DNA of 38,630 nucleotides from Balneolaceae bacterium (GTDB taxonomy: Bacteria > Bacteroidota > Rhodothermia > Balneolales > Cyclonatronaceae): contig RECM01000117.1 in assembly GCA_007694035.1 (NCBI GenBank), forward strand, positions 1 to 38,630. The letters run 5' to 3'. The notes beneath the pieces are model-generated. The model made no database searches. It saw nothing but the letters and a program-made list of their open reading frames with translations, and was not told the origin of the DNA. Below are positions 3,512 to 15,942 of this stretch, one piece after another (position 1 is the first letter of the stretch; each line of letters opens with the position of its first letter). A program made the position numbers and the translations under genes.

Positions 3512-3667
3512 CATATTAAATAATTGTGTCCGGATTCAATTTGCTATCCTCCTGTGTTTTAACAGGGTGGCCTGACACGTCTTAATCATTAGACTTCATT
3601 AATAATAGTAATCTCAGGGACCTTTTCAGGCATTGGAGCGTATTTACCATATAAACAATAAAATGTC

Positions 3668-3763
3668 ATGGAAAATATCTTCGCCTGGATCATATTGGCA
3701 GTGGCCATAATCATGTTCAACATAACTACGGAAGTCTGGAAGGACTATCTGAAGAACGGTTGA
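3668..3763 (+). CDS. tiny single-span membrane protein (31 aa), paralogue of the one at 6319
   Basis: An ATG at 3668 opens a 31-codon frame ending in TGA at 3761. The protein begins MENIFAWIIL, has one hydrophobic span (about residues 4-19), and ends in a hydrophilic tail with EVWKDYLKNG. It aligns without gaps to the 33-aa protein at 6319-6420: Met1, Ile4, Trp7, Ile9, Leu10, Ile14, Met16, Ile19, Glu22, Trp24 and Lys25 are identical, and Glu/Asp at 2 and Asp/Glu at 26 are conservative. Two independently placed copies with the same charge and Trp pattern argue for real coding. No Shine-Dalgarno is visible, which is normal for this phylum. Function is unknown; it would be an inner-membrane peptide. 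Confidence 0.6.
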   Translation: MENIFAWIILAVAIIMFNITTEVWKDYLKNG

Positions 3764-3818
3764 CCGGCCCGGGGGTGTGCCATACACACAGATGCACCTG
3801 ATTTCCGCGAACGGAAAA

Positions 3819-4082
3819 GGCCATCTCACCCATATCTTGCCATCCATCAGATGGACACATGGGGCGTATTCGAGCCATCTGAATGCCTATTTCACCCCTA
3901 TTCTGCCATCCATCAGCCGGTCTCATGGAGCGTTATCGGCCCATCTGATAAGGCATCTCACCCCTGTTTTGCTATCCATTAGCCGGTCACATGGAGCGTT
4001 ATCGAGCCATCTGACAGGCCATCTCACTCATACCCTGCCATCGATCAGATGGACACATGGGTCGTTATTCAGCCATGCGTCA
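3819..4082. repeat. four tandem 66 bp repeats
   Basis: Four consecutive units start at 3819, 3885, 3951 and 4017, all exactly 66 bp with no indels. Units 1 and 4 share the block CATCAGATGGACACATGGG; units 2 and 3 instead share AGCCGGTC(T/A)CATGGAGCG, so the array has an A-B-B-A order. Because 66 is a multiple of three, one plus-strand frame stays open through the whole array (22-residue units such as GHLTHILPSIRWTHG). That frame runs antisense into the S9 peptidase gene and has no homology that I know, so I do not call it a gene. A small hairpin (TTTCCG CGAA CGGAAA, 3802-3817) precedes the array. This fills the 323 bp gap between the tiny gene and the peptidase stop. Confidence 0.85.
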
Positions 4083-4086
4083 TGTT

Positions 4087-6135
4087 TTATTCACCCAGAT
4101 ACCTCTCCAGCCAGTCGTGTACCTCCCTGAACCAGTAAATGGAGTTCTGGGGCGATAAAATCCAGTGGTTTTCGTTCGGGAAATAGACCAGCCGTGCATC
4201 CAGCCCCATGCCTTTGTACACACCGTAAACCTCAAGCCCCTGGGTAACAGGTACCCGGTAATCGAGTTCGCCGTGGATGACGAGCATTGGGGTTTTAAAG
4301 TTTTCGGCATGCAGGGCCGGGTTCCACCGCTGCATCGATTCCAGGCCATCCCAGGGTGCCCCTGAATAGGCCGCTACCCTGTGGTAGGTACCATCGGAGG
4401 CAAACTGCCCCATGATATTGTACACACCTGCGTGGTTTATCAATGCGGCATAGCGGTCGGTATGTCCGGCTATCCAGCTTACCATGTATCCGCCGTAGCT
4501 ACCGCCGGCCGCCGCCATTCTGGTTTCATCAATATACCCGCGGCCGATCATATAATCGGTGGCATTCATAATATCGATATACGGCTTTTCGGAATGAGCA
4601 CCATGAATCGATTCTGTAAACGCCTGGCCAAAGCTGGTCGACCCGTGAAAATTGGGCAGAATGGTCACATAGCCGGGAGCGGCAAACAGATGGGCGTTCC
4701 ACCTGAAATGGAAGCTGTCGCCGAAAATGCCATGCGGACCGCCGTGTATTTTCACCACCATCGGCCATTTTTTCTCCGGATCGAAATCAGGCGGATATAC
4801 AATGTACATCTGAATATCGGCCCCCTCAGCGCCGGTATAGGTCACATTTTCGACCTTCCCGAATTTCAGCGACGCCAGCCTTTCGTCGTTCAGCCTTGTC
4901 AGTTTTTTGAGGTCCCGGCCATTCCGGCGGATCGTATAGAGTTCAGGCGGGTTTGAAAAATTGGTATGGGTAAATACAAGTCTGTTGCCGGCAGCAACAC
5001 TTACATTGCTGTTTGTGCCGCCTTTATGAATCGTTCGCACCTCACCACCTGCTGATGGCATTGCGAACAAAGGTTGCGCCCCGTCTTGTTCGGAGTGGAA
5101 GAAAATGGTGCGCCCATCTTCCGACCATATCCATTGAGAAAAACTCAGATCAATATCTTCCGTTAGCACGTTGCGCTCGCCTGTGTCACGATTGTAACGG
5201 ACCATGCGAACATTATCGGCATAGAAGTCGGTCCTGGTCTGTTTACCGTACATAATGTACCGGCCATCGGGGCTGTAAACCGGATTCTGATCGTTGGCAG
5301 GATTGTGTGCGGTGATGTTCCTGATATCCCCTGAACCATCCGTTTTAAGAAGCCAGATATCGTAGTTCAGGTATTCATACGGTGGTTCGTTGCTGTTTGC
5401 CGAGACCGCTATTTCGGTGCCGTCAGGCGAAATATCGTAACCGGGTGCACCCATCATGGCGAAATACCGTTGTGAACCGGGCATGAGGTCTGTTACCTTG
5501 CCCGACCCGATATCCACGGAGAATAACCGGGGGTACATGACATCGGTGAGCCAGCGGTCCCAGAAACGGTATGTCCGGTTCTCGGTTACCTTCGCCGTTA
5601 CCTTACTGTCGTTTCTCTCTTTCAGAATCGATTCAAGTTTGTCGAAATCACCGTTATAATCCGGGTAAATAGTGGCAGAGAAAGCAATTCTTTGCCCATC
5701 GGGAAACCATTTTGGTGCTGAAACTGCTACCGGAAGGCTGGTAATTTTACTCGCTTCACCACCTTCGGCCGATACAATGTACAATTGTGCCGGACCGTTG
5801 TGCCTTCTTGATGTGAATGCTATCGTCTTACCGTCGGGGCTCCATACCGGAGACGAATCACTGTTTCCCCTTGTAAACCGCCTTGCCGTTCCTCCCTCAG
5901 CGGAAATCAGGTAAATATTGGTCTCAGATGAATTTTTCACGATATCATATTCCGTAACCGTAAAGGCAACCGTTCTGCCATCCGGCGAGACTGCCGGCGA
6001 GCCGGGCCGGTTCATCTCCCAAAGGTCGACAGCTGTAATAGCACGTGTTTCTGCCTGCGTGTTTTGTGCGTAAACAGGCGTGCTTATTACAGCCAGAAGC
6101 AAAAGAATCACAAAATATTTTACCGGGTTTTTCAT
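4087..6135 (-). CDS. exported S9 family (DPP5-like / acylaminoacyl) serine peptidase
   Basis: The ATG at 6135 gives a 682-aa protein with a signal peptide of about 24 residues ending PVYAQ. An upstream in-frame ATG at 6294 would bury this signal, so I reject it. Residues about 35-410 contain beta-propeller repeats of the PD40 type (SPDGRTVAF, SPDGKTIAF, SPDGRYIMYG). The C-terminal alpha/beta-hydrolase has the nucleophile motif GGSYGGYM with Ser546, Asp625 in HGELDYRVP and His657 in NENHW, which is a complete triad. Family S9 peptidases of this kind release short peptides in the periplasm. The gene stands alone on the minus strand; two tiny membrane protein genes flank it on the plus strand. 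Confidence 0.93.
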   Translation of the reverse strand: MKNPVKYFVILLLLAVISTPVYAQNTQAETRAITAVDLWEMNRPGSPAVSPDGRTVAFTVTEYDIVKNSSETNIYLISAEGGTARRFTRGNSDSSPVWSPDGKTIAFTSRRHNGPAQLYIVSAEGGEASKITSLPVAVSAPKWFPDGQRIAFSATIYPDYNGDFDKLESILKERNDSKVTAKVTENRTYRFWDRWLTDVMYPRLFSVDIGSGKVTDLMPGSQRYFAMMGAPGYDISPDGTEIAVSANSNEPPYEYLNYDIWLLKTDGSGDIRNITAHNPANDQNPVYSPDGRYIMYGKQTRTDFYADNVRMVRYNRDTGERNVLTEDIDLSFSQWIWSEDGRTIFFHSEQDGAQPLFAMPSAGGEVRTIHKGGTNSNVSVAAGNRLVFTHTNFSNPPELYTIRRNGRDLKKLTRLNDERLASLKFGKVENVTYTGAEGADIQMYIVYPPDFDPEKKWPMVVKIHGGPHGIFGDSFHFRWNAHLFAAPGYVTILPNFHGSTSFGQAFTESIHGAHSEKPYIDIMNATDYMIGRGYIDETRMAAAGGSYGGYMVSWIAGHTDRYAALINHAGVYNIMGQFASDGTYHRVAAYSGAPWDGLESMQRWNPALHAENFKTPMLVIHGELDYRVPVTQGLEVYGVYKGMGLDARLVYFPNENHWILSPQNSIYWFREVHDWLERYLGE

Positions 6136-6180
6136 ATGATTAAAATTAGACTTTTCCATTATCTGGTGAAATTTGGGGCA

Positions 6181-6188
6181 TATTTTTG
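6181..6188 (+). promoter_or_regulatory. possible -7 element for the tiny gene at 6319
   Basis: TATTTTTG matches the Bacteroidota -7 consensus TAnnTTTG exactly, but no TTG lies 19-21 bp upstream and the leader would be about 125 nt. A 10 bp palindrome TAACCGGTTA (6262-6271) lies between it and the gene. Only a weak candidate. Confidence 0.25.
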
Positions 6189-6318
6189 ATGCATAATTAA
6201 TGTAGCTAAAGCCGTACTTATCTGCCCCGGAATTTTTTTTACGAATATTATTAGAACTTTTTAACCGGTTAGAGGTATACAGGTCTAACAACAAACATCA
6301 ATTGACAGGAAGACTATT

Positions 6319-6420
6319 ATGGATTCAATAGCTATTTGGTTTATTCTTTCGACTTTCATAGTAATGGTCAGCATCATTGCGGAAGCCTGGAAAGAACACA
6401 GAAATACTGAAGAGAGCTAG
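6319..6420 (+). CDS. tiny single-span membrane protein (33 aa), paralogue of the one at 3668
   Basis: ATG at 6319 and TAG at 6418 enclose 33 codons. The product starts MDSIAIWFIL, has a hydrophobic span at about 4-20, and then a charged tail EAWKEHRNTEES. It aligns without gaps to the 31-aa product at 3668 (11 of 27 aligned positions identical, including both Trp and the Glu-x-Trp-Lys motif). The gene is followed after 17 bp by a strong intrinsic terminator and divergently faces the S9 peptidase gene, so it is probably a monocistronic transcript. Function is unknown. It could be a small regulator or subunit of a membrane complex; the sequence alone does not say. Confidence 0.65.
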   Translation: MDSIAIWFILSTFIVMVSIIAEAWKEHRNTEES

Positions 6421-6437
6421 AGCGTATAGGTAACAGA

Positions 6438-6461
6438 CCCCGGCATACCGGGGTTTTTTTT
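6438..6461 (+). terminator. intrinsic terminator after the tiny gene
   Basis: CCCCGG-CATA-CCGGGG forms a 6 bp GC-rich stem with a tetraloop (6438-6453), followed directly by eight T residues. It is the clearest rho-independent terminator in the window and supports the 33-aa gene being transcribed. Confidence 0.9.
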
Positions 6462-6621: not shown

Positions 6622-7326
6622 ATGAAATATACTTACATATACAATCTGAATGATGGTACCGAACAGTCATTTGAGATCAATCTGGAACCAGATACTCTCA
6701 AACTGATCAGCAGGCCACATGATGATTTGCCAGAGTGGACCAGGCTTGATCACATGCAGTGCAGTAACTGTCCTCTCAGGATAGAAGACCAGCCACACTG
6801 CCCGGTTGCAGCTAATATTGTGGATATTGCCGACTTCTTCAAAAACCGGCATTCATACGACGATGTGCAGGTGACCGTTGTAACGGAGTCGCGCACCTAC
6901 TCAAAAAAGACCTCCCTCCAGAACGGGATCAGTTCCCTGATGGGCCTTTATATGGTTACCAGCGGCTGCCCTGTTATGGACAAACTCCGGCCACTGGTGC
7001 ATACTCATCTGCCTTTTGCCAGCCTTGAAGAAAGCATGTTCAGGATTGTATCCATGTACCTGCTTGCCCAGTACTACCGCTTCAGAAAAGGAGACAACCC
7101 CGATTGGGAGCTTCACGGCCTGAGCGACCTTTTCGAAGACATAAGCACCGTGAACAGAGCCTTTGCCAACCGGCTGCTTTCGATTGTGAGCAAGGATGCA
7201 AACCTGAATGCGCTTATTATTCTCAACTGTGTTGCTGATATGGGAAAAATGGCCTTTGAAAGCGAAGACATGGATGAACTGGAATACCTGTTCAGCGCTC
7301 ACATGAACCCGAAAATTACGGTATAA
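6622..7326 (+). CDS. conserved-looking protein of unknown function with Cys motif (234 aa)
   Basis: I do not recognise an established function. The N-terminal 45 residues form a beta-rich part (MKYTYIYNLNDGTEQSFEIN). A Cys cluster C47-x2-C50-x9-C60 (CSNCPLRIEDQPHC) follows, then a segment with C116 in TSGCPVMDKLRP and His127/His129 in VHTHLPF, and a helical C-terminal half. Four Cys and two His could bind a metal or FeS cluster; this is inference from spacing. No signal peptide or membrane span is seen, so it is cytoplasmic. It lies alone, after a terminator and before a repeat block. It could equally be a structural or sensory protein. Confidence 0.8.
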   Translation: MKYTYIYNLNDGTEQSFEINLEPDTLKLISRPHDDLPEWTRLDHMQCSNCPLRIEDQPHCPVAANIVDIADFFKNRHSYDDVQVTVVTESRTYSKKTSLQNGISSLMGLYMVTSGCPVMDKLRPLVHTHLPFASLEESMFRIVSMYLLAQYYRFRKGDNPDWELHGLSDLFEDISTVNRAFANRLLSIVSKDANLNALIILNCVADMGKMAFESEDMDELEYLFSAHMNPKITV

Positions 7327-14608: not shown

Positions 14609-15802
14609 ATGATATCAAAGCGCGCGGAGTCCCTCGCTCCCTCAGAAACCCTCAAAATTTCGGCACGTGCCAAAGAATTGCAGCGTGAAGGCCGTTCCGT
14701 TATATCGCTCAGCCAGGGCGAACCCGACTATAAAACCCCATCCTTCATCTGTGATGCCGCGATTAAGGCGATCAATGACGGCTTTCATGGCTACACCATG
14801 AATACGGGAACGCCCGAACTCAGGGAGGCGATCTGCAGCAAACTTCGGCGCGATAACGGATTTGACTACACCCCCGGCCAGATTGTAGTATCGAACGGCG
14901 CGAAGCAGTCGATTGCGTTCGCCCTGCTGGCAACCATCAACCCGGGCGACGAGGTGCTGATTCCTGCCCCCTACTGGGTTAGTTATCCGGAGATGGTAAA
15001 ACTGGCCGGCGGAACCCCGGTCATAATCCGGTCGGCTTTCGACAACGACTACAAGATCAAAGCCAGCGAGCTTGAAAATACCATAACCCCGAATACCAGG
15101 ATGCTCATTCTCTGCTCACCGTCGAACCCGACGGGAAGCTGCTACACTGCTGAAGAGCTCGGCGAACTGGCTGCGGTTCTGCGCAAACATCCCGGTATAT
15201 TGGTGCTTTCGGATGAGATCTATGAATACATCGTATTCGACCAGGCCCACGCGAGTATCGGGCAGGCCGCGCCTGATCTGTACGGGCGCATTATTCTCGT
15301 GAACGGTTTTTCAAAGGGTTTCGCCATGACCGGCTGGCGGCTGGGTTACCTGGCTGCGCCACAGGCTATCGCCTCGGCCGTGGCCAAGCTGCAGAGCCAG
15401 CTCACCTCGGCCCCTTCATCCATATCCCAGAAAGCCGGCGAGGCAGCCTACAACGGAAAAATGGATGAGGTGCATGCCATGGTTGCCGAATTCAAAAAGC
15501 GGCGCGACTACCTGGTAGGCGAGCTCAGAAGCATCCCCGGGGTTAAATGCTTTATGCCTGGCGGCGCCTTTTATGCCTATCCCGACATATCCGGTTACCT
15601 GGGTAAAACTGCCGCCGACGGCACCGCTATCGATACCAGTACCGACCTGTGCATGTACCTGATGGAAAAAGAAGGGCTGGCCGCCGTTCCGGGCGATGCA
15701 TTCGGAGAGCCCGACGGAATCAGGCTGAGTTATTCCACATCCATGGATCAGCTGCGTGAGGCCGTGAGCAGGTTGAAAAAAGCGCTCGCCTCCCTTCAAT
15801 GA
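14609..15802 (+). CDS. class I PLP-dependent aminotransferase, aspartate aminotransferase type
   Basis: The 397-aa protein has the class I fold landmarks: SQGEPDYKTP near the start, SNPTGSCYT (172-180), SDEIYEYIVF with Asp202 and Tyr205, and the PLP-lysine in FSKGFAMTGWRLGYL (Lys236). A C-terminal GIRLSY supplies the substrate carboxylate Arg. Length and motifs match the thermophile-type aspartate aminotransferase (AAT Ib). It interconverts aspartate/2-oxoglutarate and oxaloacetate/glutamate in the cytoplasm and may also accept other amino acids. It is probably transcribed alone from its own promoter; a 32 bp tandem repeat array lies after its stop. Confidence 0.93.
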   Translation: MISKRAESLAPSETLKISARAKELQREGRSVISLSQGEPDYKTPSFICDAAIKAINDGFHGYTMNTGTPELREAICSKLRRDNGFDYTPGQIVVSNGAKQSIAFALLATINPGDEVLIPAPYWVSYPEMVKLAGGTPVIIRSAFDNDYKIKASELENTITPNTRMLILCSPSNPTGSCYTAEELGELAAVLRKHPGILVLSDEIYEYIVFDQAHASIGQAAPDLYGRIILVNGFSKGFAMTGWRLGYLAAPQAIASAVAKLQSQLTSAPSSISQKAGEAAYNGKMDEVHAMVAEFKKRRDYLVGELRSIPGVKCFMPGGAFYAYPDISGYLGKTAADGTAIDTSTDLCMYLMEKEGLAAVPGDAFGEPDGIRLSYSTSMDQLREAVSRLKKALASLQ

Positions 15803-15804
15803 TC

Positions 15805-15942
15805 TTACAACATGCCCGCATCCCCTCTTTGGTTATACTACGTGCCCGGCATCCATTCATTGGTCATACAACATGCCAAGCATACCTTAATTGGTTTATA
15901 CGACGTGCCCCGCAGGCCTTCATTGGTTTATACCACACGATG
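15805..15942. repeat. tandem ~32 bp repeats downstream of the aminotransferase gene
   Basis: About four units of the pattern ATACnACRTGCCnnGCATnC followed by CTTnATTGGTTT follow each other at 30-32 bp spacing, ending in a truncated fifth ATACCACACGATGG. The array fills most of the 221 bp gap to the FmdB-like gene. A plus-strand frame crosses it but has no independent support. It could act at the RNA or DNA level. Confidence 0.75.

What the first reader, a model, noticed from the sequence alone, without database searches (positions are those of the whole stretch)
3668..6420. Two homologous tiny membrane proteins flanking an S9 peptidase
The 31-aa (3668-3763) and 33-aa (6319-6420) frames align without gaps, sharing 11 of 27 aligned positions with a hydrophobic span and a common E-x-W-K motif after it. 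One is followed by a textbook terminator. Both lie on the plus strand around a minus-strand exported S9 peptidase. I know no family like this; both are below usual gene-caller limits. They could be subunits or regulators of a membrane complex. Paralogy and placement are seen; function is inference.
Basis: partly seen in the sequence, partly recalled or inferred. Interest (0 to 1): 0.65.

Follow-up and report, generated by a model that had tools for sequence, protein, structure and literature searches.

The report
Paired orphan tiny membrane proteins
Two very short genes that annotation normally skips encode related single-span membrane proteins on either side of a peptidase gene; they look real but are confined to one little-known bacterial genus, so they are a small new family of an already well-known kind.

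Summary
Two plus-strand frames (3668-3763, 31 aa; 6319-6420, 33 aa) encode single-span hydrophobic peptides that align without gaps: 11 of 28 positions identical, including E-x-W-K just after the span. The resemblance is far above chance. The first frame is almost certainly a gene: its orthologue in the only other held genome of the genus has 11 synonymous against 6 non-synonymous codon changes, the same stop, and the same place beside the S9 peptidase's 3' end. The second has a conserved leader with a Shine-Dalgarno sequence and its own terminator; but in the sister species only its first 21 residues survive, joined in frame by a ~290-bp deletion to the neighbouring DUF6901 gene. No homologue turned up outside the genus (9 family genomes, the order, a phylum sample, an 84,980-species pattern scan). 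S9 orthologues elsewhere in the family lack such frames nearby. Best reading: a genus-restricted paralogous pair of N-out/C-in small membrane proteins, most likely regulators or accessory subunits of a membrane complex. The partner is unknown and a link to the S9 peptidase is not supported. A new orphan family of a known kind; modest interest.

The parts
3668..3763 (+). sORF1, 31-aa single-span membrane protein MENIFAWIILAVAIIMFNITTEVWKDYLKNG
   Evidence: orthologue in the same-genus genome G001 (C153:180-275, minus), 25/31 aa identical, 11 synonymous / 6 non-synonymous codon changes, stop conserved
6319..6420 (+). sORF2, 33-aa single-span membrane protein MDSIAIWFILSTFIVMVSIIAEAWKEHRNTEES
   Evidence: paralogue of sORF1; first 21 codons 61/63 nt identical in G001, then deleted/fused there
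6307..6312 (+). Shine-Dalgarno-like AGGAAG, 6 nt before the sORF2 ATG; the leader 6279-6318 is 38/41 identical in G001
6205..6268 (.). conserved block (57/64 identical, against about 73% in adjacent S9 coding DNA) between the divergent S9 and sORF2 genes; probable promoter region. Contains ATTATTAGA, also present in similar form upstream of sORF1 (CATTAGA, 3587-3593)
   Evidence: single copy in both genomes
6435..6456 (+). intrinsic terminator of sORF2 (AGACCCCGGCATACCGGGGTTT + T run)
4087..6135 (-). exported S9-family peptidase (signal peptide MKNPVKYFVILLLLAVISTPVYA), the gene between the two sORFs; no evidence that it works with them
6622..7326 (+). DUF6901 protein (234 aa), separate from sORF2 here but fused to the sORF2 N-terminus in G001

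Best explanation
sORF1 and sORF2 are two real small genes, descended from one duplication, each transcribed on its own and each encoding a one-helix inner-membrane protein with a short acidic N-terminus outside and a polar E-x-W-K tail at the cytoplasmic face. They most likely work as small accessory or regulatory proteins: the helix packs against a larger membrane protein and the Trp/Lys tail sits at the cytoplasmic interface. The pair arose or became recognisable within this genus. Shown: coding of sORF1, the sORF1/sORF2 relationship, restriction to the genus at the sensitivity used, and the terminator. Inferred: translation of sORF2, orientation, and the regulatory or accessory role. The partner is unknown.
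For: sORF1 against its G001 orthologue: the same 22 substitutions placed at random give 16.8/31 identities on average and a stop in 62% of cases; the observed 25/31 without a stop was reached in 0 of 20,000; dN 0.12, dS saturated. Frame 0 is by far the best-scoring frame for both the orthologue and the paralogue pair. sORF2 has a conserved leader and SD sequence, and a terminator. Paralogy statistics. Synteny: G001 C153 carries sORF1 next to the last S9 codons, and C12 carries S9, the sORF2 start and DUF6901. Net charge -1 to -3 with the only Lys/Arg in the C-tail fits N-out/C-in by the positive-inside rule. Regulation of membrane enzymes and transporters by such proteins is established in other bacteria (abstracts of PMC2789325 and PMC10576120, MgrB-PhoQ; PMC11539335).
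Against: No expression data. Only one orthologue of each is known. sORF2 is truncated and fused in G001, so its free form is dispensable there. There is no conserved partner gene: S9 neighbours elsewhere lack the sORFs, and DUF6901 relatives elsewhere have no matching TM frame upstream.
Confidence: 0.5

Rival explanations
1. They are type I toxin-antitoxin toxins: small hydrophobic peptides in duplicated copies, normally silenced by an antisense RNA.
For: Size, a single helix, duplication and autonomous transcription units fit. The sORF2 leader and its synonymous sites are unusually conserved (2 of 21 third positions changed against 80/216 in DUF6901, P about 0.005), as expected if the RNA itself matters.
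Against: Net charge is -1 to -3, whereas most membrane type I toxins carry cationic C-terminal residues (PMC8309996; IbsC, ShoB and DinQ are exceptions). No antisense terminator was found beside either frame, and Rfam shows no antitoxin above threshold. sORF1 shows no extra synonymous conservation.
Confidence: 0.15
2. sORF2 is tied to DUF6901: a membrane adaptor that tethers the DUF6901 protein, as suggested by the in-frame fusion in the sister species.
For: The G001 ORF of 237 aa joins sORF2 residues 1-21 to DUF6901 from about residue 18. The junction shares only about 1 base, so a repeat-driven assembly error is unlikely.
Against: A single case. The deletion removes the N-terminal beta-hairpin of DUF6901 (predicted strands 2-9 and 14-20; weak model), so it may be damage. 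DUF6901 elsewhere in the order has no TM partner frame, and sORF1 has no DUF6901 neighbour.
Confidence: 0.15
3. They are accessory subunits or regulators of the S9 peptidase between them.
For: The order sORF1 - S9 - sORF2 is kept in both species of the genus.
Against: The S9 peptidase is exported. Its orthologues in the other family genomes (62-73% identical) have no such frame nearby. The sORFs lie on the opposite strand, so they are not in its operon.
Confidence: 0.08
4. sORF2 is a leader peptide / attenuator of DUF6901, not a functional protein.
For: The order peptide - terminator - gene, on one strand, resembles attenuators.
Against: The paralogue sORF1 has no co-directional gene right after it. 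No alternative antiterminator structure was seen. Amino-acid similarity between the paralogues shows protein-level constraint.
Confidence: 0.06
5. Chance frames or non-coding conserved DNA.
For: Short frames are common, and sORF2 against G001 alone does not prove coding (only 2 changes).
Confidence: 0.06

Closest known systems
Small single-span regulatory membrane proteins of E. coli (such as MgrB, YohP)
   Same: Similar or only slightly larger size, one hydrophobic helix, separately transcribed small genes.
   Different: No detectable sequence relationship; partner and regulation unknown here.
Membrane-associated type I toxins (Ldr, TisB, Ibs, Fst)
   Same: Short hydrophobic helix, sometimes duplicated.
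   Different: Acidic overall, no antisense RNA seen, no family match.
PF10808 DUF2542
   Same: sORF2 aligns to the first 29 profile positions (14.6 bits, E 0.047).
   Different: Below the curated cut-off (25 bits); the family is 79 positions long. sORF1 does not match. Probably generic TM-end similarity.

Membership tests
Small single-span membrane proteins (descriptive class) | Under about 50 aa with one hydrophobic segment long enough to span | tested here: met
   (best mean hydropathy over 17 residues 2.5-2.7)
Small single-span membrane proteins (descriptive class) | Translated and membrane-located | not testable with these tools
   coding of sORF1 supported by substitution pattern only
Type I toxin | Antisense RNA antitoxin locus | tested here: inconclusive
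   no minus-strand terminator beside the frames; nothing above threshold in Rfam; no transcript data
Type I toxin | Cationic C-terminus (usual, not universal) | tested here: not met
   net charge -1, -2, -3; tails mixed; rule and exceptions from PMC8309996
Type I toxin | Toxic on overexpression | not tested
   needs experiment
DUF2542 (PF10808) | Score over the family's gathering cut-off | tested here: not met
   14.6 against 25 bits for sORF2, no match for sORF1
PHROGs / NCBIfam families | Significant match | tested here: not met
   best E 0.017, partial and uncharacterised

The most novel reading that the evidence does not exclude
The pair is a genus-specific module in which the sORF2 helix is a swappable membrane anchor: free in one species, it recruits DUF6901 to the membrane, and in the sister species a deletion has hard-wired it as the N-terminal anchor of DUF6901. 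That would be gene fusion caught in the act between a sub-40-codon gene and its partner.
Probability: 0.12. Interest if true: 0.5.

Novelty: new member of a known kind. Interest (0 to 1): 0.27.

Why it matters
It shows that a real, duplicated gene family can sit entirely below gene-caller length limits in an uncultured lineage, and it gives a concrete pair to test. The in-frame fusion of one member's membrane helix to DUF6901 in the sister species offers a rare lead to a function for both. [quoted passage not shown]

Tried and rejected
Profile hits outside the genus (G019, G101, G031, G044, G120/122/124/126, G385 and others): those translated gave no short, properly started hydrophobic frame with the motif, and G385 lies in a 533-aa frame; all rejected as chance. 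Viral contigs: none. Plasmids with the sORF2 region: none. Solved structures: no match for the sORF profile or for DUF6901. Rfam: only a sub-threshold istR hit on the other strand (22 against 45 bits), rejected. Structured RNA in the sORF2 transcript: no excess stability except the terminator. Conserved sORF2 upstream block as a genome-wide regulatory element: single copy. AlphaFold model of DUF6901 was poor (pLDDT 54), so no fold search was made.

Full report
WHAT IS THERE. The window is a whole contig (C1) of a 4.0-Mb, 279-contig genome assembly. The only other held genome of its genus, G001, is the metagenome-assembled 'Rhodothermaceae bacterium isolate MAG3' (JAIVHB01; same 3,582-base contig with the same match). 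Between them on minus is an exported S9 peptidase (PF00326); after sORF2 comes a DUF6901 gene, 6622-7326.

IS IT MORE THAN CHANCE. The two peptides share M1, I4, W7, L10, I14, M16, I19, E22, W24 and K25 with the G001 orthologue in one register. Shuffling that preserves the hydrophobic core and the tails separately gave 0 of 20,000 alignments as good. Among 7,210 short frames the next best anchored score, apart from the orthologue, is 22 against 58. A DNA pattern of the shared positions, run on 395 genomes of the phylum, found only these two frames plus one unrelated non-hydrophobic stretch. Random placement of the observed paralogue differences gave as good a protein score without a stop in about 1 of 10,000 trials. 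The two are paralogues.

IS IT CODING. sORF1: G001 carries MEDIIYWILLAVLIIMFNISTEVWKDYLKNG in otherwise poorly conserved intergenic DNA, with substitutions 7/2/13 by codon position, 11 synonymous against 6 non-synonymous changed codons, dN 0.12 and dS saturated. Random placement of the same substitutions never gave 25/31 identity without a stop. In G001 a hairpin plus T run follows the stop. sORF2: SD-like AGGAAG, a leader 38/41 identical in G001, and a strong terminator at 6435-6456. Its first 21 codons differ from G001 at two third positions only, so that comparison alone shows strong nucleotide conservation rather than proof of translation; the evidence for coding is the paralogy.

THE SISTER SPECIES. 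In G001 the order sORF1 - S9 - sORF2 - DUF6901 is kept, split across two contigs that both end inside S9. There a deletion of about 290 bp relative to the window removes sORF2 codons 22-33, the terminator, the spacer and the first 17 or so codons of DUF6901, leaving one 237-aa frame that starts with the sORF2 helix. DUF6901 elsewhere in the order keeps its N-terminus, so the fusion is derived. The junction shares about one base, which makes an assembler artefact from repeated sequence unlikely, but reads could not be inspected. It may be a functional fusion or simple loss of sORF2.

DISTRIBUTION. A profile of the family finds nothing credible in the nine other family genomes, the order (129 genomes) or a phylum sample (395) (candidates translated). 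A pattern scan of 84,980 species genomes returns only the G001 sORF1. S9 orthologues in other genera of the family have no comparable frame nearby, though several of those contigs are short. DUF6901 is missing from the rest of the family and present in a few other genomes of the order without a matching frame upstream. Peptides this short diverge beyond detection quickly, so 'genus-restricted' means at this sensitivity.

HOW IT PROBABLY WORKS. Acidic residue at the N-terminus, one hydrophobic span, then Glu-x-Trp-Lys: by the positive-inside rule, N-out/C-in with Trp and Lys at the cytoplasmic interface (inference). Acidic net charge, no sign of an antisense RNA and separate transcription favour a small accessory or regulatory membrane protein over a type I toxin (usual toxin features: PMC8309996), without excluding the latter. 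No partner is established. Position alone links them to S9; a single fusion links sORF2 to DUF6901.

COMPARISON AND VERDICT. The pair works like the many known small membrane proteins but belongs to no named family in Pfam, PHROGs or NCBIfam (DUF2542 is below cut-off). It is a new orphan family of a known kind; genus-specific small families are the majority in the global catalogue (PMC11364881). Modest interest; the most useful lead is the sORF2-DUF6901 fusion.

Noticed in passing
3817-4076: Array of about four 66-bp degenerate repeats (about 76% alike) between sORF1 and the S9 3' end; found nowhere else in this genome or in seven related genomes searched. In G001 a hairpin followed by a T run is at the equivalent place.
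   Followed up: partly
6622-7326: DUF6901 protein with a conserved C-x2-C-x9-C motif (C47, C50, C60) and another invariant Cys (C116); looks like a possible metal-binding protein. Absent from the rest of the family, present in scattered genomes of the order.
   Followed up: partly
L106:1441-2154 (G001:C12 from 1785): In-frame fusion of the sORF2 N-terminus (21 aa) with N-terminally truncated DUF6901 in the sister species.
   Followed up: partly
6205-6268: Intergenic block between divergent S9 and sORF2 is better conserved (89%) than neighbouring coding DNA (about 73%), suggesting shared regulatory DNA.
   Followed up: partly
15787-15933: Second array of degenerate tandem repeats (31/63-bp unit) at the end of the 14609-15802 gene.
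   Followed up: no
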